From positions 16,329,501-16,393,500 of the forward strand of contig CM040094.1 of NCBI GenBank assembly GCA_022496805.1: DNA of 64,000 bases. The letters are read 5' to 3'. The stretch is from Pohlia nutans. Its lineage: Eukaryota > Streptophyta > Bryopsida > Bryales > Mniaceae. This document shows positions 9,198 through 63,352 of the stretch, one piece after another. Below the pieces are notes generated by a model that was given only the letters and a program-made list of their open reading frames with translations, had not been told where the DNA came from and ran no database searches. Made by a program: the position numbers and the translations under genes. Each line of letters starts with the position of its first letter. The stretch's first letter is position 1.

Positions 9198-9532
9198 GCA
9201 CGGAGCTCAGTGTGTAGTATTCATTGCTTGGACCAAGAAACCATTGCATTGAGTGCTGTGCACTTCCATCAATGAATATCGTTATCAAATGCTATACACC
9301 AGCATTGCACGTATATCCCCATTCAATGCACTCATTCACATATTCCCCCATATTACCCACTCGCCCCGTCTCAATGCCAAGTGACACCTCAGTATGTGCA
9401 GAAGCACACAATGAACTCTTAATTTGACAACTGAAATGATCCAACTGAAACAGCACTACAGTAGTCCACAGGGCAACTGATTGGTGGGTGCCGTACGTAG
9501 ACAGAAGTAAAAGGGTCGGAGCTCCCGGTTGA

Positions 9533-9580
9533 TTGTCCCATAAGGTTTGCCATGGCCTCGGGCAAAAGAGGGATATATAA
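9533..9580 (+). promoter_or_regulatory. U2 snRNA promoter (USE and TATA box)
   Basis: TATATAA lies at 9574-9580, 25-31 bp before the U2 start. A GTCCCATAAGG upstream-sequence-element match (plant consensus RTCCCACATCG) lies at 9535-9545. The roughly four-helical-turn spacing is the arrangement known for Pol II-transcribed plant snRNA genes. Confidence 0.75.
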
Positions 9581-9604
9581 GTGCTGGAGTGAGGAAGAAT
9601 GAGC

Positions 9605-9800
9605 ATACCTTTCTCGGCCTTTTGGCTAAGATCAAGTGTAGTATCTGTTCTTATCAGTTTAATATCTGATACGGGGCTCATCGAGCCCCATGATATTAAT
9701 CTAATTTTTCAGCGGGTGCGGGTCCATCCGGCAGCTTGCTGCCCGGACTCGCGCGCGTCGCCTTGGTCTTGCACTACTTCCTTGGCTGGCGCAGCCCCAC
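9605..9800 (+). ncRNA. U2 spliceosomal snRNA, copy 1
   Basis: The RNA begins ATACCTTTCTCGGCCTTTTG, the canonical plant U2 5' end. It contains GTAGTA (9638-9643), which pairs with the intron branch site. Stem-loop IIa/b sequence follows (GATACGGGGCTCATCGAGCC), then an AATTTTT Sm-type site (9703-9709) and GC-rich 3' stem-loops. U2 snRNP recognises branch points in the major spliceosome. The 3' end is estimated from the usual length of about 196 nt; I could not place a clear 3'-end box. Confidence 0.93.
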
Positions 9801-10497
9801 CCCCCTCCCCCCAGAGGGACCCAATCTCAAACCCTAAACTGCAAACCGCTACTGAATTCTCAAGAACTCGGGGTCTGCCTGCCCTCTTCATATGAACTCT
9901 ATGCTCCTCAAATTGGCAGGATTCATGGCATCACATTGTTTCTAAATATATCTGATCTGTACAATGCCATGAAAGCGAGAACGACGTAACTGAATCATTT
10001 TGCCCTAGCCATGCCTCATCGGCAGTTTTGTAAATGAACAAATTCATACAATGCGCTCATAAATGGACACAAAACCCTAGTCCAATAGCGAAGAAAGCAT
10101 AAGACGCATCCGGTGCGCAACTACAAGAATAAATTAGGGTTTCGCAGCGGATAGCAGAGATGCTTGTGATGAAGTTGCTGCATTTACACTAGGAAGCCTA
10201 ACAGAAAGAAGTTGCACAAAAAAATGAAATTGCATACTGCATCACAAATTTGCAAAGAAAAATTTGCTCGCCAACAAACCTCTCACAAATCATTGCAACC
10301 AAACTCCAGAATTTAGGGCAACAGTTGACGCTTCAAAGAACCTACGTTCTTCCAAACTCCGTGAGGACCCGATCACGCACGTCTACATGTACGAAAATGG
10401 GTGTCACATCCCTGATCCAAATCAACTAAAATAAGCGAAATCTACCAATTGTGTGATTCTATCTACACAGCACTTGCTTGTTCTTAGGTCATACCTG

Positions 10498-12004: not shown

Positions 12005-12914
12005 TTAAGAACCCACCTATTACCCCATATAACATCACCAAAGGAGAAATCATCTCTAGCAAAGCCAAATGATCCTGTTACTACCAACCACACCTGATCA
12101 ATTTCTTTACAAGCCTTTTACCACTTCCCGGACCATCACACGAAAGAATCATCATCGTACAAAATTAACTTCTTAGTTTCATGCAACTTGATGAAGGAGT
12201 GAGAGGTCGTAGGAGTGAGTTACAGAGGTAACTTCCACCGACAGTGAAGAGTCGAGGCCAAGCAAACTTTATATTTATAATCCAGACTTTGCCGAAAGGA
12301 CTCAATCAGCCTGCCACCTAAAAACTTCAGCAACTCCTCGGCGCCTTAGTACACGGAGTTTGGAAGAACGTAGGTTCTTTGAAGCGTCAACTGTTGCCCT
12401 AAATTCTGGAGTTTGGTTGCAATGATTTGTGAGAGGTTTGTTGGCGAGCAAATTTTTCTTTGCAAATTTGTGATGCAGTATGCAATTTCATTTTTTTGTG
12501 CAACTTCTTTCTGTTAGGCTTCCTAGTGTAAATGCAGCAACTTCATCACAAGCATCTCTGCTATCCGCTGCGAAACCCTAATTTATTCTTGTAGTTGCGC
12601 ACCGGATGCGTCTTATGCTTTCTTCGCTATTGGACTAGGGTTTTGTGTCCATTTATGAGCGCATTGTATGAATTTGTTCATTTACAAAACTGCCGATGAG
12701 GCATGGCTAGGGCAAAATGATTCAGTTACGTCGTTCTCGCTTTCATGGCATTGTACAGATCAGATATATTTAGAAACAATGTGATGCCATGAATCCTGCC
12801 AATTTGAGGAGCATAGAGTTCATATGAAGAGGGCAGGCAGACCCCGAGTTCTTGAGAATTCAGTAGCGGTTTGCAGTTTAGGGTTTGAGATTGGGTCCCT
12901 CTGGGGGGAGGGGG

Positions 12915-13110
12915 GTGGGGCTGCGCCAGCCAAGGAAGTAGTGCAAGACCAAGGCGACGCGCGCGAGTCCGGGCAGCAAGCTGCCGGATGGACCCGCACC
13001 CGCTGAAAAATTAGATTAATATCATGGGGCTCGATGAGCCCCGTATCAGATATTAAACTGATAAGAACAGATACTACACTTGATCTTAGCCAAAAGGCCG
13101 AGAAAGGTAT
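12915..13110 (-). ncRNA. U2 spliceosomal snRNA, copy 2
   Basis: Mirror image of the copy at 9605-9800, with the same branch-site-pairing GTAGTA, Sm site and 3' stem-loops. Promoter and transcribed region appear identical, so by sequence both should be expressed. Confidence 0.93.
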
Positions 13111-13134
13111 GCTCATTCTTCCTCACTCCAGCAC

Positions 13135-13182
13135 TTATATATCCCTCTTTTGCCCGAGGCCATGGCAAACCTTATGGGACAA
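13135..13182 (-). promoter_or_regulatory. U2 snRNA promoter, second copy
   Basis: TATATAA (13135-13141) and GTCCCATAAGG (13170-13180) on the minus strand, with the same spacing as in the left arm. Confidence 0.75.
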
Positions 13183-13517
13183 TCAACCGGGAGCTCCGAC
13201 CCTTTTACTTCTGTCTACGTACGGCACCCACCAATCAGTTGCCCTGTGGACTACTGTAGTGCTGTTTCAGTTGGATCATTTCAGTTGTCAAATTAAGAGT
13301 TCATTGTGTGCTTCTGCACATACTGAGGTGTCACTTGGCATTGAGACGGGGCGAGTGGGTAATATGGGGGAATATGTGAATGAGTGCATTGAATGGGGAT
13401 ATACGTGCAATGCTGGTGTATAGCATTTGATAACGATATTCATTGATGGAAGTGCACAGCACTCAATGCAATGGTTTCTTGGTCCAAGCAATGAATACTA
13501 CACACTGAGCTCCGTGC

Positions 13518-53699: not shown

Positions 53700-55195
53700 C
53701 CTCATATCTACCCCGGTGGAGGATTCCTCTACTCTAAGGCTCCCAGCACGCACTCCCACACTCCACGAGAGAGACGACGAGCGAGCGAGCGAGCGAGTGC
53801 CCCGCTTTAACTTTTGCATTGTAGATTCGTCGTTTGCACGTTGGCGCTATGAATTTGGCGGCCCTCCTTTCGGTCGGCTGTCAGAGCATTCCGAGGAATT
53901 CATAGAAATTACATTTGCTTGCGAATCGAGCCTTTCCGTGATCCCTGGGGTTGATACTTTGCGTTTTTACTCTGTTTTCGCAGACACGGCCACTTGACTT
54001 TCGTGCATAATCTGGTGCAGTAGGTTAGTTTTACGATGATTAGTTCATTGCATTGGACAGTGTGTCGGACAAATTGACAAAAGTTCTTCTCGAGAGGTTT
54101 TGGAGGTTTGACGGTTGAATCAGTCGGGAGCTCTTGTTCCGCATAATCTGGCGGAGTAGTTTAGTTTTTTTTAATGATGATTAGTTTAATGTATTTGACA
54201 GTGTGTCAGAAATTCGACAAAAGTTCTCCTGGACAGGTTTTGGAGGTTTGATTTGCGTAAAACCTTTGGAGGTGCTTGAGAGATTTCAAGGTACAAGTTC
54301 CTCACCGAACGCCGTAGTATGTAAGTATTATTGGAGTTTGAAAGGAAGTGTTGGTTATGTGTGTGTTTAGATTCTTACGGTTGGTAAAGTAGAGGAGTGC
54401 ACGTGGATATTCTTCAACCGGCTTGTATTTGCAGGCTGTGTAATGATTGCTCACTCAGGAGGTAACGCAATGCCTTTTTCGTATTCTGCGTCCTGTTGTA
54501 AACTGACGTTGAAAGTGTTCGGGCGTTTGAGGCACGAGAGTGGCCACCTCAGTTCTTTTGTCGGATTTTTGTACCTGGCTGGCAGTCGTGGTGTTTCGAT
54601 TGAACTAGATTCTTACGGTTGTTAGGTCGAGGGATGCACGAGGATTTGCATATATTAACATTGCTCGGTGAACAGGTCGTTTTGCAATGCGTTTTCGTGT
54701 CTGTCTGTATTCTGCTTCTGATTATAAGCTGACATTGAAAATGTTCGGTAGTTGAGCAGCCTTAGTAGAGCGTTTCGTGCTTGAAAGTGGCCATCGTCGC
54801 TCGTTTCCGGAACATCAGAAGTTATTCAAGGCGAAAATGAACGTGGCGATGGCCATCCTTGTAGAAGCTGCGGAGTGATGTACTGCTTGTGCTAATGCCT
54901 CTTAGTTGTGTTCCTATGATTCATAAGGACGGCGTTTAGACTATCCTTAGTCCTTGTACCAATGTATCGATAGTTTTTTAATCCCTCAGTTGCGGAAGAT
55001 GTCAAGTAGAGTTACTAATGTGAAGCATTGCGTGCAGACATGGAGGAGTAAATTGGAGTAGCTGGAGCATGCCAGTTACTGCCCTCAGAGTGGCGTTATG
55101 TGCACAATTTTTAGTGATGAATTCGTGGGGGTGATTGTGGATTTCAGGCCTCCGGCGGCTTGCCAGATGCTCTAGGAGCATTCCTTTCGTTGTTG
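53700..55195 (+). promoter_or_regulatory. Promoter and spliced leader of the coiled-coil gene
   Basis: GC content rises from about 53500. A (GAGC)5 microsatellite lies at 53779-53797. A probable leader intron runs from a donor at 54291 (TTTCAAG|GTACAAG) to the acceptor at 55148 (GGATTTCAG|GCCTCC), 47 bp before the ATG at 55196. Two GTGTGTC(A/G)GA(A/C)AAATT-like duplicated blocks lie around 54060 and 54200. Confidence 0.5.
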
Positions 55196-58100
55196 ATGGC
55201 GGAACAAGAGACCTCTCTCAAACGCTCTAAGGAGCCTGGGGAGGTGTTTAGCGTTTCCAAAATAGAAAAACCTGGAAACACTCCCTCCCAGAACTCGAGC
55301 TCTGCACTTGGAAGCTCAGAGGAGCTTGGGGAGTGTAGTAGTGGAAGTGACATAAGAAAGGGGGAACTGATAGCATCAAGTGAGAGTATTAATGTAGAGA
55401 TCCGTACTGATGAGTTACATTATCGCACGCAGTCCATCAAGGCCTCAGAGAATGTATCCTTCCCCGGAGATACGAAGAGTGGCTCAATGGAAGACGTCAC
55501 GATTGATGGTTGTGGTGATAGGGATAACCAAGAACAACATTCGAAAGTAAAAGAGAAAAATTTGCAGGTCCATCATGATGAACTAGCTCCATCTGCAAGC
55601 CTCGAAAAGCTTAATAATTTGGAGAATGTCTCAGTTTCACGGTCAGTTCCAAGGGCAGCATCCGGGGAGAGGGAGGATAGCAATACCAGTATGCTAGTGT
55701 CACGATTCCTCTTTAAGCAGTTGAGGAATTTAGCTGCAAAGGAAAGAGACTTAGGACTCAGGTTAGACCAGGAGAGAATTGAACATGTTGTGGAGAAGGT
55801 GGAAGGCGAGGTTGAATTTGAACAGGTAATCGATGAAATGTGGTTAAGTATGCGTGCTGACAACGAAGCACAGGAAATGGAACGAAAGGAGAGGGATTTT
55901 GAGATGGAAAGACGTGAGGTACAGCTCCAAGAAGAAATCAGAACATTGCAGGGGAAGGTTCTCCGGTTGGAAGATGAGCTACGTCTCAGTCATGCCGAGA
56001 AGGAGTTCGCTCTCCAAAAGAAACAGGATGAGATGGACGACACTATCCAGAGCATGCTTGGGGATATGCGGGACGGTGGAGAAGCAATGCCGGATGTTGT
56101 AGCTGACGGAGGTAGTTCAGTAACCAATGATTCAGAACTAGTACTTGCTGCTCCGAAACGACGAACCGCAGCTAGCCCACAGAAGGCTATCTTTCTTGCC
56201 TTCGAGGATATGTTGAAGGAGGCTGATGAACGATCGAAGCAAGACCGGCACATCATTGAGTCCACCTTACAGGCGAAAGAGAATCTGGAGAATGTGTTTC
56301 AGCAAGATCGACAAAAATGGCACGAGAAGGAACGCCATTTGGAGAGTGGATTACTTGCTATGGAGAAGGAGGTAAGTAGGTTCTCAAGTGTGCTGAGAGA
56401 GGTTGAGTTGGCCTTCTTAGTTGAGCAAGAGAGACGGAAAGAAGCATGTGCGGAAGTAGATCAAGTACTGGAAACTTGGAAGGAGGAAAAGATAATTCGA
56501 GGGGAATATGAAGATAAGGTGAAGCGGTTGCTTTCCTTTCTGACGAGTATCAAGGAGAAGTTAACCACTGGCGAGGATGGCGAGGAAGACGCCACGAACA
56601 GATTAGCATCTGTTTTGAAGGATTTGAACAAGGAACTGCAAAGAATGAGTTCCAAGAAATTTAGCACGAAAAGAGCTAGGCTATTGGAAAGCGAGCAGTC
56701 CTGTCGGTGGAAATTGCAGCGGGATGCAGCTCTAGTAGAGAGGGATAACCTGGAGGAGAAGCTCAATGTGCATGTGAGAAGGGCAAGGGATAGAGAAGCA
56801 GAGATAGAGTCAATGTGGATGGAGAGAGAGAGGGATTTAGTTACAAAATGTAGTCAGTTGGAGGCTACCATTGTTCAGTGGGAAACAAGGTTTAAGAAGA
56901 GGAACTCCGAAGTGATGCAAGAGAGGAAAGTCTTGGAGATGGAGCTGGAAGCACATCGCAAGCAATGGGCCGATGAGAAGAGTGGTTGGGAAGCGTTTGT
57001 TCTGCAGCGGGAGCAATGGCTTGCGGAGCAGGTTACAAAGTGGACATCCTTGCTTGATGCCAAGGATCTAGAATTGACTTCTCTCAAAAAAGAACTCGAA
57101 GAGTTGGATAGTTCATTCAAAGATGTCAAGCAAGCGTTAGAGAATCAGTCCCAACAGGTTCGTGATCAGCAGAAACAGATGCTAGAAAATTCTTCGCAAA
57201 CTAATACTTCATGCGAGAGCTACAAAGCAGGAAGGAATTCAGAAGAAGGTGAAGGAGAAACCTGCCAGAGTATTGAGGAATTTGTCCATGAGATTGACAC
57301 GGTAGAGGATGTGGACGATGCAAAACCAGACATAGGTACAGACAACGTAGAGAAACTTAGACTCGAAAAGGAGGAACTCGAGGAAAAGCTTTCTAGTGCA
57401 CTAAAGCTAATGGATGAGCTGCGAACTGAATTCCAGAATAAAATCGCCCAGTTTGATGCAGAGAAGAAAGATCTGGAAGCCGGAGTTTCATCTAAGACAG
57501 CTGAAGTAGAGGACCTTGCAGGACAACTCAACGCAAGAGAACGTCAAATGCAGAGTCTCATGCAGAAATTCAGGGATGAAGTATCGAACATAGATAGAGA
57601 AGTCGAAAAGGAACGGAAAGAAAGAGAGGAAGTGATGGAAATGCATTTTGTTGCGAAACGCCGCCTTCTTGAAGAGATTCGCGAGAAAGAAGAGAGCTGG
57701 CAAAATGATATGGAGGGAATGACGCAAGAGTTGCTCGAATCAAGAGAGTGGGCTAGGCAGAAAGATGAGGACATCGTTATTTTGAAGGAAGATTTGCAAG
57801 CACTTGACGAGCAAAAGAAAGCGGAGGAGCAGAGGTTATCCAAAAGGATCTACACTTTAATGAAAGAAAAGGATGTCTTAACCGCTGCACTTGCTCGAGA
57901 ACAGAAGGCTCGGGAAATAGCGGAGACCGAATATCAGAGGCTCGAGGGAGAGAATGCTATACTTCTTGAGGAGTTGAGTTCTGAACAGCACTGGAATTCG
58001 ACAGAGCTGCAAGCGGGGGATGATGATTGCAAGAGTGACGCTGTAGATCGGGTTTCCAATATGGAGAAACAACTTGCGGAAGCCATGACTGCGATGGAGC

Positions 58101-60551
58101 GCCTAAGAGAAGAGCTGGAGACTAAGGAAACACAACTTGTACAAGCCAAGATGGACAACGAGGCTGAATGGGAGAAACGTCAAGCTACTTTGGATCAAGA
58201 ACATAAAGAAATGTTAGAAATGCGAGAACAACAATGGCAGCAGAGGTGGATGCATAAGGAGCAAGAAATTATTTCTGCCAACGACAAGATATTGGCCGCC
58301 CAACGGGAAGAAACCGCTGTTGTGCAAGGAGCCCTTAAAGAACTAGAATGGTCGATCAAGCATGGGGACATGGATATCAAAGCTAGATTAGCAGAGTTAT
58401 CAAAGAAGGAAGGAATGGTGCAGGTACATACATCACACTTGGAGGAGGTGGATCAGTATGTACTGGATCTTCAAAAAAAGTTAGAGGAGTCGGAAAAGAA
58501 GCGAAAAAGTGCTGAGATTGCTGCGTCCGTACTAGAGTTAAAAAGAGTAGCTAGTCTTGATGTAGCTCTTGTCCAGGGGGACAGGGATGGGAGGCCGTTA
58601 TCAAACATGCTTAGGCATGATGGACATCTCACATCTCCTCTTTCTATAGAGAATGGAATGGAGAGCTTGCGAATACGCACGAGATCTTCTCCTGGGCATA
58701 GAAGTGGACGAAGTAGTTTCTCTAGTATTAGGGAGATCCAGCCCGACACGAATTGGGAGATTGAAAACTCCAGCAGGTATATCCCTCTCTGAGCCTACAC
58801 CTGCGTTTTACTTCCTTTATGTTTGTAATTTTATCAGAATTAGAGTGCAAGGATTTGAATCTGACTTTGCGGGGATAATTCATGTGTAGCGTACTTGTCT
58901 TTATACACCAGCAGTTATTCGTATAGATTCTTATTTAATTCTTGAAGATGAATCTTTTGGAACTTGGCAAGACAGACTGGAATGGACTACTATCAGTTCT
59001 GTGTGCAGCTCGTCTCGCCTCTATACTTTAGTGGTGCAACAAGAGGAGTTCCTGCCACCTCTTCCTGCATTTTGGTTTATTTTGTACCAAAAAGAGAGAG
59101 CGTGCGTATATTTATTTGTGTATATATTTCTATAGTTGTTGGTAATGATGGTATCTATTGAAGGGGTGCAGTGCGGGGCGTTTCAGTGGAAATACCAGTT
59201 CTAGCTGGCATGGTCAGCCTCGAGATGATTACTTCCCTTCGCCGCCCCCAGCATCGCCTGGACGACGGCAGCAAAAGTGGCTCGTGGATGCTGCTTGGTT
59301 GGAGAATGTCCGCAAGGTACTCGAGCTTCATGTGTCAGCACATAACCTCTTGTGGGAGGCTCCTGGTTGGGAGCAGATTCTTTCAACGTTCAAATCTTTT
59401 CTTTTGCTATGTTTTCTTTTTAAGCCAGTCTACGTATAGACTTGTTTGCATACAAAGGGCGTTATGATAATCTGAGAATCACTAGTTGGCCTAAATAATA
59501 GGAACGGACTGTAATTGGTCAAGTAGTGCTGGAGAAAGAAATCCCCTGAGTATCTCAACAGAGAGTGAGCAGCTTTGGCATGGTCAAAGTAACGTTTGAC
59601 GTGTGAGTTGTGAGACTCAGCATATTGATGAAAGTTGTTACCTTGCATCAGGAACAAAGTCTTTTACGGCAACAGCTTGAAATCGAGAGACAACGGGTTT
59701 TCTCACTTGGTCAGGTAGGCATGACACTGCTGCATGGTGGAACACTGCCTTTGCATCCCTTTCAGCTCGTGACATATATTTATCAGGAAATATGTAACTC
59801 GTTATTCTTGTTAGCCATGTTGAATATTTCAATTCACATTGGACTTCTGAGATTCAACCCTATCGATTCAAGCAACCCTTACAATTTCATGACACAAAAT
59901 CTTGAGGCTCATTTTGAGGATTTCCCCAATGAATTGGCAGGTTGAAACTGAGAACAGGTTCATAGAAGCAGCAGTTATACGGGCTATGGAGGAGAAGCAT
60001 GAGAGCGAATCGAAAGCCATGGATTTGCAACAGCAGGTGCGCTGGTCACAACTCTCTTCTTTAGCACTTTTGGTTTGCATGCCAGTTAATCACCCAGAGC
60101 CCCTCCGATAAGAATCTATCGAGCCAAAATTTAATGTTCCCGAAACTTTGAGGAATAGTGCCTTAAAATATGAGCTTCAGGGAAGCTACCTTACTAGCTG
60201 TTATCTGTGCATTTATGTAGATCTTCTTACGGTCCACTCTGGTCAAATATAAAGAACTTGGAACCGTAGTTGTTGAGCAAGAACGAATATTGTTGAAGAC
60301 TGGTATTGTAAAAAGTATAAAGGTCAAAGTAAAGAATTAAGAAAGAGCCATCATAAAAACAAGAAGCTTCTAGTGGTCGGTATATATTTTGCACAAATTA
60401 GCATATCAAGCCCATTCCTGCCATACAAGGGCTTTATGCTCTTGATCAGCCTTCATCTTCATCATTAAAAGCTGACCTAGTTGTTGGGTGGAGATAGGTG
60501 ATTTTGTTGCAGAAGATGCTGGCTGCTAGGTCCGAAACCTCCAAGGGTTGA
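55196..60551 (+). CDS. Large coiled-coil protein, about 1,307 residues
   Basis: Exons: 55196-58776 (one 3.6-kb exon), 59172-59316, 59652-59714, 59941-60036, 60513-60551; all junctions preserve frame and the last reads KMLAARSETSKG then stop. The first in-frame ATG (MAEQETSLKRSKEP) is chosen, 47 bp after the acceptor. Residues 1 to about 165 are Ser/Glu-rich and likely disordered. From about 170 to 1130 the sequence is almost continuous heptad-rich Glu/Lys/Leu coiled coil with many EELEEKL-type runs. A Ser/Pro/Arg-rich tail (SPGHRSGRSSFSS, SPPPASPGR) and a short final coil (LLRQQLEIERQRV, VETENRFIEAAVIRAMEEKH) follow. No motor, CRWN/NMCP or other signature was recognised. A structural or tethering protein is inferred. 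The 3' exons are less certain than exon 1. Confidence 0.85.
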
Positions 60552-61748
60552 AATGTACCATGAGTCAGCTTACCTGCAACTTTTGTACAACACTTTCACA
60601 GACCCAAGAACGAGTCAAATTCAACCTTTCAGAGCTCATGAAGGCGAAGATGAGGATGAACTTGTCACATTGAAATACCACTCTAGAGATTATATTGGTC
60701 ACCTCGAAGTGGTCACTTTATCGCCCACCAAACCAAACAGGTTTTTGGTAGGTTCTGTATCATATATGCATTACTACTTACAGAGTGTAGTTGTTATCCT
60801 CACAGGCGAAAGACGAAACTTTTTAATCCCAGGCGACCCGAAAATTGGGTCCCTCAAACGGTGATTGGCAAACGGCCAGTTCAAAACTGTTCTTTTTATT
60901 TAATTTGAAATGTGATCGTAGTATCTTAAGTCTTAAACGCCAACGGGTATGGAACAAAATGTTTCCTCAGCTTTTTGGAAGTTTGTAAAAAAAGAGGATG
61001 TCCGACGTGATTCTTAGAGAATTTTCAGTTTTGGAATGACAATAGAATTATCCGTAAAGTCCATCAAAGTTTGAAGAAGATACCACAAATTTTTCTTTAT
61101 TATAATCTTATTTGTTCACTCTAAATAGTTAAAAGATGTGAAAGATCTTGGTAGTTTATCATTATTAGGTGTGTAAGAGGTGTGTGAAAGCTTGTTGGTC
61201 TTCAAAAGTTTTTTAGCTCCTTTCTTGGTGCTAAAATACTTTTGAAGACCACCAAGCTCTTACACACCTAATAATGATAAACCACCAAGATCTTTCATAC
61301 CTTTTAACTATTTGGAGTGAACAAATAAGAGTATAATAAAGCAAAATGCTTTGTAGATTCGTCAAATTCAAGGTGACTTTATTGATAACTCAAATTTGTA
61401 TATGAAGCTTGAGAACTTGCTACTTCATTAGTGAAAGCTTGTATCTTCCTCAAGGTGCAAGAAATTAGGTTCTAACCACACAAGTAGTCATTGATTGGGT
61501 ACTTATGTGAAAGCAAAAGTACTCATTGGTTGTTGTAAAAGGAAATGAGTATTACTTGGTGGCCCATTCACATACACCAATGCTGTTGCATGCATGCGTG
61601 AGGTAACTTTGAGGGAATTTGTTGTCAACTAAGAAATATAAAATACGCAATTAGAAATTACTCTATTACATGACAAAGGAACGGAACCCAAAAAAGGAGC
61701 ATGCTGCATTGTAATGCATATGCAAAGTGTCTGAAAAAACAGTACATA
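60552..61748. other. Intergenic region with a foldback element
   Basis: No gene is recognised; it includes the 3' UTR of the coiled-coil gene, an element end at about 61040 (TAGAATTATCCGTAAAGTCC) resembling that of the MITE at 4104, and the hairpin at 61092-61346. Confidence 0.5.
61092..61346. repeat. Foldback (hairpin) MITE, copy 2
   Basis: The arms of about 115 bp are nearly perfect inverted repeats: TTTATTATAATCTTATTTGT on the left against ACAAATAAGAGTATAATAAA on the right. The inner part pairs through GGTGTGTAAGAG / CTCTTACACACC. The loop is only about 20 bp. Related to the hairpin at 21100-21405. Confidence 0.9.
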
Positions 61749-61943
61749 CAGTGACTTCAAGAAATGAGTCAATGCCCCTATCAAGGAGCATTGATGGGGG
61801 CTAGCTGGGAAACATTAAGGCAGATGAAGCCGAGCAAAAAAATCTATTGTGACTCATGAACTCTTAACACATGCCACATGGCGCTTTGCCTAAATAATAT
61901 CTACATTGTGAGTTAAGATCACAAATGTGCATGTACCCTTACA

Positions 61944-61959
61944 GACTCATTTTTTGAGG
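61944..61959. repeat. Internal subterminal repeat of the Tc1 element, left
   Basis: GACTCATTTTTTGAGG is the reverse complement of CCTCAAAAAATGAGTC at 63139-63154. It also matches, with one change over its GACTCATTT(C/T)TTGA core, the inverted copy in the outer terminal repeat of the same side. Confidence 0.9.
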
Positions 61960-62098
61960 TGGCTTGTGGAGCAACTTCACATGGCAACATTTGAGTGTAG
62001 AACATAGAGAAATTTGTGTTTTTTGATGAAATTTTTTGTGCTTTCTCTTCTCTTCCCTCTTGTGGAACATACTGTGGAGAATAGGAATTAGAATTGGC

Positions 62099-63121
62099 AT
62101 GATGAAGCCAATTTCAGGAGACAAAGTGAGAGATATTGTTGCTTTTTTGATGAAAGGCAAGAATACAAGAGTGGTTGCGAAGTCATTGGGTTTCTCACAG
62201 AGTACGGTGAATAGAGTGAGGAAGAAACATTGTAGTGACTTAGAATTGCCAAAACGAGGTGTTCCAAAGATTCTTAGCGCTTCAGAGATACGACGTGCAG
62301 TGCGTTTGGTCACGGTTGGAGGGCTAGAAACGGCAGTACATGCAGCAAAAGTGTTGAGAGAGGGTAGAGAAGTGGGTTTCTGTGATAACACTTTGCGGTC
62401 TGCTTTGAGAGATGCTGGATTGAGTGCCTGTGAGAAGATTCCTAAGCTTTGTTTGTCAAAGAAAAATGTACGAGAGAGGCTACGATTTGCAAGAATTCAT
62501 GAAGAGTGGACAGTAGAGGATTGGAAGAGAGTTGTATTTAGTGATGAAACGAAGATAAATCGTTTCAATGCGGATGGGAGGACTTGGTGCTGGGTCAATG
62601 ACCAAAAAATCTTCCCTGATCGTGTGGTGAAGCAAACAGTGAAGCATGGTGGAGGGTCTTTGATGCTATGGAGTTGTATGACAGCAAGAGGTGTAGGTGA
62701 TTTACAAAGGGTGGACGGGCGTATAAATGCGAAGGACTATATTACAATCTTGCATGGAGATTTGTACTTGAGTTTAAAGAGATTAGGATACTTGAACCTC
62801 GGTAACGTCATTTTCCAGCATGATAATGCTCCTATACACAAGGCAAAGATTGTTCAAAAATGGCTCTTAGAGCAACCATTCACTGTTTTAGAGTGGCCAG
62901 CTCAATCCCCAGACCTAAATCCCATAGAACATGTTTGGGCAATTCTCAAACATCGTTTGAATTCCTATCCAACTCCTCATGTAGGTCTTTTGCAATTATG
63001 GGAGCGTGTGGAGGAGACTTATAAGACGATCACTACAGAGCAGTGTGAGAGATTGTATGCTAGCATGCCAGATCGAATTGCAGCTGTTTTGGTTGCTCGT
63101 GGAAAGTGGACAAGATTTTGA
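62099..63121 (+). CDS. Tc1/mariner-superfamily transposase, DD34E
   Basis: The enzyme cuts and pastes the element into TA sites. The frame is open from 62036, but the start is placed at ATG 62099 (MMKPISGDKVRDIV), the usual helix-turn-helix start, giving 340 residues, a typical Tc1 length. The N-terminal DNA-binding region (about 1-115) contains AKSLGFSQSTVNRV. The catalytic triad is D149 (VVFSDETKI), D242 (IFQHDNAPIH) and E277 (SPDLNPIEHVW), with exactly 34 residues between the last two. The GGGSLMLWSCM motif is also present. The DD34E spacing and motifs are of Tc1 type, as in animals and fungi; plant mariner-like elements are usually DD39D. No stop or frameshift interrupts it. Confidence 0.96.
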   Translation: MMKPISGDKVRDIVAFLMKGKNTRVVAKSLGFSQSTVNRVRKKHCSDLELPKRGVPKILSASEIRRAVRLVTVGGLETAVHAAKVLREGREVGFCDNTLRSALRDAGLSACEKIPKLCLSKKNVRERLRFARIHEEWTVEDWKRVVFSDETKINRFNADGRTWCWVNDQKIFPDRVVKQTVKHGGGSLMLWSCMTARGVGDLQRVDGRINAKDYITILHGDLYLSLKRLGYLNLGNVIFQHDNAPIHKAKIVQKWLLEQPFTVLEWPAQSPDLNPIEHVWAILKHRLNSYPTPHVGLLQLWERVEETYKTITTEQCERLYASMPDRIAAVLVARGKWTRF

Positions 63122-63138
63122 CCACTCTTTCTATAACG

Positions 63139-63154
63139 CCTCAAAAAATGAGTC
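63139..63154. repeat. Internal subterminal repeat of the Tc1 element, right
   Basis: CCTCAAAAAATGAGTC, 17 bp after the transposase stop codon; mirror of 61944-61959 and inverted relative to the outer right terminal repeat. Confidence 0.9.
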
Positions 63155-63352
63155 TATGTACATAGTCAACTTTGGCACTATGTATTTTTTTAATCTAGTG
63201 GCAATTTCTTTTCAATTTTCTTGAGGTTGTCAATTACTTCATGCTCTCAAACTTTCATGTTCAAAATTTATTGCTTTGATTCTTCATACTCTCTACGTTG
63301 TTACTTTTCTAAATCAAATACCCTCAAAGACTCATTTCTTGAAGTCACTGTA

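What the first reader, a model, noticed from the sequence alone, without database searches (positions are those of the whole stretch)
61749..63350. Intact Tc1-type (DD34E) transposon in a plant genome, with fungal-like transposase
The element has perfect 22-bp terminal repeats, TA target duplication and an uninterrupted 340-residue transposase with D149, D242 and E277 (34 residues between the last two). Plant mariner-like elements normally carry DD39D. Motifs such as SDETKI, GGGS-MLW and WPAQSPDLNPIEH recall fungal Tc1 elements. Transfer from a fungus or animal associate is an inference. Intactness suggests it could still be active.
Basis: partly seen in the sequence, partly recalled or inferred. 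Interest (0 to 1): 0.75.

Follow-up and report, generated by a model that had tools for sequence, protein, structure and literature searches.

The report
Young Tc1-type jumping gene in moss
This is one recent copy of a multi-copy Tc1-type jumping gene in the Antarctic moss Pohlia nutans; such elements in mosses are already known, but its ends carry four transposase-type sites in an unusual mirror arrangement that three element families of this moss share.

Summary
At 61749-63350 lies a 1602-bp Tc1-like element with exact 22-bp terminal repeats, TA duplication and an open DD34E transposase. The host is the moss Pohlia nutans: assembly lengths match the published ones. The element is neither lone nor contaminant: its transposase has 119 scored matches in the genome, and the homeologous site on another chromosome is empty, so this copy most likely landed after the genome duplication. 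Its ORF is open, but it carries 8 private substitutions, 5 missense, two at nearly invariant positions, so 'intact, hence active' is weak for this copy. Younger sister families exist (0.20-0.24% divergence). Plant DD34E elements (2014) and the fungal-transfer idea for Physcomitrium (2020) are already in print; a fungal donor could not be tested here. Not met in my reading: each end holds an outer and an inner site in inverted orientation, cores 182-184 bp apart at 115 of 120 ends of families A, B and C, while the site sequence changes with the family. The multi-site Tc1 ends that I read about use direct repeats.

The parts
61749..63350 (+). complete Tc1-like element, 1602 bp, subfamily called A1 here
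   Evidence: same unit with the same ends at other places of the genome
61747..61748 (.). left TA target-site duplication
   Evidence: empty homeologous site
63351..63352 (.). right TA target-site duplication
61749..61770 (+). left terminal inverted repeat, 22 bp
   Evidence: 100% complementary to the right one
63329..63350 (-). right terminal inverted repeat, 22 bp
61757..61771 (+). outer left site (TCAAGAAATGAGTCA), putative transposase binding site
   Evidence: binding is inferred
61943..61957 (-). inner left site, inverted relative to the outer one, no CAGT terminus
   Evidence: (I2, I4)
63141..63155 (+). inner right site, inverted relative to the right outer one
   Evidence: (I2, I3)
63328..63342 (-). 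outer right site
62099..63121 (+). transposase ORF, 340 aa (second ATG at 62102 gives 339 aa)
62117..62230 (+). first helix-turn-helix (helices 6-17, 22-29, 33-43 in 339-aa numbering)
   Evidence: AlphaFold2, mean pLDDT 78.6; HTH_23 below its cut-off
62279..62413 (+). second helix-turn-helix (helices 60-71, 78-86, 95-104)
   Evidence: HTH_Tnp_Tc3_2
62528..62965 (+). DDE_3 catalytic domain with D148, D241, E276 (DD34E)
   Evidence: (D148, D241, E276 invariant in 17 sequences)

Best explanation
The finding is one copy of a DD34E Tc1-like cut-and-paste DNA transposon that lives in many copies in the moss Pohlia nutans. The transposase binds the ends through two helix-turn-helix domains, brings them together, cuts next to CAGT and inserts at TA. 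Shown by sequence: ends, TA duplication, ORF, triad, predicted fold, family copies, empty homeologous site. Inferred: binding and catalysis. The ends carry four sites, outer and inner at each end, facing each other about 183 bp apart; most likely the inner sites are extra transposase-binding sites that help assemble the synaptic complex, as the inner repeats of Sleeping Beauty do, but mounted in mirror orientation. This copy most likely inserted after the moss's recent whole-genome duplication and has since picked up missense changes.
For: Ends, ORF, triad. Domains and fold. Family: 119 scored matches of 3850 first-look candidates: 56 rows full or nearly full length (at least residues 10-339) at 94-100% identity (29 without stops), 15 near full-length at 88-92% (7 without stops), 11 partial or decayed, 37 at 59-62% (30 without stops). 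Young: mean pairwise divergence 1.31% in 30 A1 copies, 0.20% in 5 B1, 0.24% in 12 C. Empty homeologous site; left flank 93% identical to the homeologue. Purifying selection between families: dN/dS 0.20-0.23 in four comparisons (B1-B2, A1-B1, A1-B2, B1-C, the last with saturated dS). Four-site arrangement in A1, A2, A3, B1, B2 and C; core spacing 182-184 bp at 115 of 120 ends of 60 copies. Inverted matches are rare in dinucleotide shuffles (left/right, of 2000): A1 17/1, A2 1/0, A3 0/0, B1 0/1, B2 10/0, C 2/0; control family D 252/1998; best direct match 6-7 mismatches of 16. Left non-coding DNA of A1 against B1 and B2 is otherwise near chance (6.3 and 6.6 of 18 identical) with its highest windows at the inner site.
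Against: No binding, expression or excision was measured. The inner sites could serve regulation and not synapsis. Family D of the same genome lacks inner sites by the same tests; F shows none, though its ends are less alike and the test is weaker; E has long terminal repeats instead: so inner sites are not needed by all its Tc1-like elements. On the right side A and B non-coding DNA is alike more widely (9.2-9.4 of 18), so the right inner site stands out less, and in the ungapped A1-C and B1-C comparisons the highest windows are the termini, not the inner sites. Left matches of A1 and B2 are the weakest (17 and 10 of 2000). This copy has 5 private missense changes.
Confidence: 0.85

Rival explanations
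1. The inner inverted sites are operators or promoter parts: the transposase binds there to repress its own gene (left) and they have no part in synapsis.
For: The left inner site lies about 140 bp upstream of the start codon. Repression of a Tc1-like promoter by its transposase was tested for Bari3 (passage).
Against: The right end carries the same mirrored pair at the same spacing downstream of the stop codon, where an operator has no clear use.
Confidence: 0.15
2. Outer and inner inverted sites act as a hairpin in single-stranded DNA or in read-through RNA, which marks the element for silencing or helps cleavage; no protein reads the inner site.
For: The pairs are complementary over about 15-19 bp and stay largely complementary while the sequence changes between families.
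Against: Core spacing within 182-184 bp at 115 of 120 ends of A, B and C fits protein-DNA geometry better than a loop, whose length would be free to drift. Both explanations fit the co-change of sites.
Confidence: 0.1
3. The element is a recent arrival in the moss by horizontal transfer from a fungus.
For: Published trees place Physcomitrium PpTc1 and PpTc2 next to fungal elements (PMC7466625, passages). Families B1 and C are very young.
Against: A and B lines are diversified in this genome (dS about 1.3 between them), so they or their carriers are not new; repeated transfers are not excluded by this. No named fungal sequence could be compared. A scan of prokaryote genomes gave 54 loci, all distant (matches longer than 100 residues are 22-31% identical), and two scans of viral contigs gave none.
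Confidence: 0.25

Closest known systems
PpTc1 and PpTc2, DD34E Tc1-like elements of the moss Physcomitrium patens (Liu and Yang 2014, PMC4054914, parts 1-3 of 5 read)
   Same: moss host, CAGT termini, TA duplication, 338-aa DD34E transposase, 1584 and 1709 bp, recent multi-copy families with some intact ORFs
   Different: their sequences are not in the tools held, so kinship was not measured; 33-bp terminal repeats against 22-28 bp here; no inner sites are described in the parts I read
Sleeping Beauty (IR/DR group of Tc1-like elements)
   Same: DD34E; outer plus inner site at each end; catalytic domain is the closest solved relative and fold; two-part DNA-binding domain (passages)
   Different: its two sites per end are direct repeats in terminal repeats of about 220 bp (passages); here they are inverted and the exact terminal repeat is 22 bp
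Bari1/Bari3 of Drosophila (IR-DR group)
   Same: several transposase sites per end
   Different: three direct repeats per end (passages)
DrTRT of zebrafish (DD37E)
   Same: a 23-bp subterminal inverted repeat pair besides the terminal repeats (passages)
   Different: DD37E; whether its inner pair is a turned copy of the terminal site is not stated in the passages I saw
PlantMar (DD39D plant mariner elements)
   Same: Tc1/mariner superfamily in plants
   Different: DD39D and restricted to dicots, monocots and a few oomycetes (passages of PMC7325037)

Membership tests
DD34E Tc1-like elements | catalytic triad DD34E in a DDE_3 domain | tested here: met
DD34E Tc1-like elements | TA target-site duplication | tested here: met
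   25 of 30 A1 copies with standard termini, all 25 TA...TA; empty homeologous site
DD34E Tc1-like elements | terminal inverted repeats beginning CAGT | tested here: met
   window copy and 25 of 30 A1 copies, the window's included; A2 copies read CAGC, CACC, CACT or similar
DD34E Tc1-like elements | single ORF of about 340 aa with two N-terminal helix-turn-helix domains | tested here: met
DD34E Tc1-like elements | transposition by cut and paste | not testable with these tools
   needs an excision assay
IR/DR group of Tc1-like elements | two or three transposase sites per end as direct repeats | tested here: not met
   best direct match 6-7 of 16 mismatches at both ends in A1, A2, A3, B1, B2, C; inverted match 0-3
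IR/DR group of Tc1-like elements | terminal repeats of 200-250 bp (as given) | tested here: not met
   22 bp here, plus an inner pair of 17 bp
PlantMar DD39D | DD39D triad | tested here: not met
   DD34E
PpTc1 lineage of mosses | sequence kinship to PpTc1 transposase | not testable with these tools
   no sequence of PpTc1 held; in size family B fits best (1585-1587 bp, 338 aa)
element acquired from a fungus | position inside a clade of named fungal elements | not testable with these tools
   relatives listed are unnamed

The most novel reading that the evidence does not exclude
Mosses host a group of Tc1-like elements with a distinct end architecture: four sites facing each other in pairs at a fixed distance of about 183 bp, kept through more than 50% protein divergence (A against C) while the site sequence changes with its transposase. 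This would mean a synaptic complex built differently from that of the direct-repeat (Sleeping Beauty) type.
Probability: 0.5. Interest if true: 0.5.

Novelty: new variant of a known kind. Interest (0 to 1): 0.4.

Why it matters
As a plant DD34E element it extends to a second moss what was shown for Physcomitrium. The mirror-image four-site ends, if functional, offer a natural test of how much the orientation of inner sites matters for Tc1-type synapsis, which in the papers I read is described for direct-repeat elements. The near-identical families B1 and C in the same genome are good candidates for elements that moved very recently in a moss.

Tried and rejected
Contamination: rejected. Lone recent arrival: rejected as stated, since 82 of 119 rows belong to group A and 37 to group B. 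Viral carriers: two scans of viral contigs, with the transposase and with an alignment of 17 proteins, gave no relative. Prokaryote carriers: one scan gave 54 loci, all distant and IS630-like by my reading; matches longer than 100 residues are 22-31% identical. Naming the relatives: impossible, as the protein collection gives no organisms. Evidence of transcription: proteins 95% identical to the window's (P0001, 73 members, longest contig 1515 bases) and 99% identical to family C (P0067, 11 members, 1511 bases) come from short JGI contigs, which fit transcripts but equally collapsed repeats, so I do not count them. Counting all ends by an exact pattern: not completed. Papers on inverted inner sites: the listings, and the passages opened from them, showed none that describes them for a DD34E element; subscription papers are mostly not held. 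The orientation of Tc3's inner site I could not establish.

Full report
Observation. Its 22-bp terminal repeats are exact, TA flanks both ends, and the ORF at 62099-63121 is open for 340 codons with a DD34E triad. Pfam finds DDE_3 and, just over its cut-off, HTH_Tnp_Tc3_2. By sequence the nearest solved structure is the Sleeping Beauty catalytic domain, E 7e-46; an AlphaFold2 model from 17 aligned sequences (mean pLDDT 78.6, pTM 0.62) shows two three-helix units before a catalytic fold whose best matches are Sleeping Beauty (E 4.9e-18) and Mos1. The stretch 155-184 is not confidently modelled.

Host. The window lies at bases 16329501-16393500 of a 23.4-Mb contig, in an assembly of 697,796,988 bases and 332 contigs. 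[quoted passage not shown] The host is therefore, by inference that I hold for certain, the Antarctic moss Pohlia nutans. The search of that paper's main text found no 'Tc1' and no 'mariner'.

Copies. The transposase finds 119 scored matches among 3850 first-look candidates, a lower bound. By my count of that table: 56 rows full or nearly full length at 94-100% identity (A1; 29 without stops), 15 near full-length rows at 88-92% (A2; 7 without stops), 11 partial or decayed rows (one of them, A3, at 72% with 5 stops), and 37 rows at 59-62% (B; 30 without stops, ten of them with one and the same score). A domain search (PF01498) scored 150 places of 2395 candidates; 0 of 14 control genomes ring. 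A long run of its rows shares one score; of 12 loci that I fetched from that run, 10 carry the start motif of a family that I call C. Reading of fetched loci gives four further families, C, D, E and F. Divergence, mean of pairs: A1, the 30 best of the 56 rows, a choice that favours intact copies, 1.31%; A2, 6 of 7 fetched (one lacks an end; a further locus with two A2 copies was not used), 3.2%; B1, 5 copies, 0.20%; B2, 6 copies, 1.8%; C, 12 of 15 loci (two lack the start motif, one gave no ends), 0.24%; D, 10 copies, 0.9%. Two A1 copies (L026, L029) share flanking sequence and may stem from one insertion that was duplicated.

Empty site and age. The left flank (60349-61748) matches C9:20496621-20498004 at 93% over 1369 of 1400 bases. 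A 151-base stretch there runs from the left into the right flank with no element in between. The target TA reads TG there, and 10-30 bases to the left there are small gaps in the alignment. So this insertion is most likely younger than the split of the two regions; a clean loss from the other chromosome is the alternative. Against 24 comparable A1 copies (of 29; the rest differ in length or alignment) the window's copy has 8 private substitutions, 7 of them transitions, 7 in the ORF, 5 missense; two of these fall at positions that are nearly invariant among 17 transposases (116 and 293). Between families dN/dS is 0.20-0.23 in four comparisons, one of them with saturated dS; A1 against A2 gives 0.45 and 0.51; A1 against C gave no value, and one A2 copy gave no reading frame and was dropped.

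Ends. Inside the element lies a second exact inverted pair of 17 bp, 61943-61959 and 63139-63155. It is a turned, slightly altered copy of the outer site. The same plan occurs in A2, A3, B1, B2 and in C, whose site sequence is different (GTCAAAACTGATCA against TCAAGAAATGAGTC and CAAAAACYGAGTC). Measured core to core over 60 copies and both ends, spacing is 182-184 bp at 115 of 120 ends. The five others are one A1 left end, two A2 left ends and one A2 right end at 181, and one A1 right end at 171; the last may be L028, whose match to the element stops at base 1544. In shuffles that keep dinucleotides, an inverted match as good as the observed one appears in 17 (left) and 1 (right) of 2000 for A1, 1 and 0 for A2, 0 and 0 for A3, 0 and 1 for B1, 10 and 0 for B2, 2 and 0 for C; for the control family D in 252 and 1998. 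Direct matches have 6-7 mismatches of 16. Left of the ORF, A1 against B1 and B2 is otherwise close to unrelated DNA (6.3 and 6.6 of 18 letters), with the highest windows at the inner site. On the right the same pairs are more alike throughout (9.4 and 9.2 of 18), so the right inner site stands out less; and against C, where the site sequence differs, only the termini stand out. The inner sites lack the CAGT end. D has no inner site; F shows no inverted one in the two copies tested, whose ends are less alike, so that test is weak; E has long repeats, arms of 545 and 368 bp in the two loci read, and its ends were not settled.

Reading. Sleeping Beauty has an outer and an inner site per end as direct repeats; the transposase binds first at an inner one, which orders the synapsis (PMC7827188, passages). 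Bari elements have three direct repeats (passages). The simplest reading is that the moss elements use inner sites for the same purpose, in mirror orientation. Binding is inferred. A regulatory role or a hairpin role remain possible. That the site sequence changes together in all four places while spacing stays fixed argues for a protein that reads all four, but a hairpin would also keep the pairs alike.

Known or new. DD34E Tc1-like elements in Physcomitrium and, mostly as fragments, in angiosperms were reported in 2014 (PMC4054914; parts 1-3 of 5 read). Their likeness to fungal elements and possible transfer from fungi was put forward in 2020 for Physcomitrium (PMC7466625; passages and section 24). 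My tree of 70 rows (59 of the 120 proteins: the first 60 less four under 300 residues, plus three more; ten moss rows; Sleeping Beauty) puts A and B with nine unnamed proteins in one fully supported clade (P0001-P0008 and P0010, 100/100), and C with P0034 (100/92); deeper forks are weaker and long branches were flagged. Donor and direction of any transfer cannot be read from it. The mirrored four-site ends were not described in what I found (listings and passages opened from them), though zebrafish DrTRT has a subterminal inverted pair and I could not establish the orientation of Tc3's inner site.

Verdict. A real, recently inserted, multi-copy moss Tc1-like element; ordinary in kind, with an end architecture that deserves a test.

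Noticed in passing
window 9198-10363 and 12352-13517: A 1166-bp inverted duplication, 100% complementary, 1988 bp apart, each arm with a U2 spliceosomal RNA gene (9605-9799 and 12916-13110). Either a very recent duplication or an assembly artefact.
   Followed up: partly
   Followed up: partly
L061-L075 (family C, for example G000:C1:10394850): Another DD34E-type family, 1609 bp, mean divergence 0.24% among 12 copies, with a long run of genome rows of one identical domain score: a very recent burst in Pohlia nutans.
   Followed up: partly
L041-L043, L047, L049 (family B1): 1585-bp sister family with 0.20% divergence among 5 copies; ten genome rows share one score.
   Followed up: partly
L048 (G000:C14:14354031-14359772): Two A2 copies in inverted orientation about 1 kb apart with identical scores, again a possible inverted duplication.
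   Followed up: no
L076, L079 (family E): Tc1-like family with very long inverted repeats (545 bp at 100%, and 368 bp at 99%).
   Followed up: no
window 55121-58792: An uninterrupted frame of 1223 codons, rich in charged coiled-coil-like sequence by eye, without a Pfam match.
   Followed up: no
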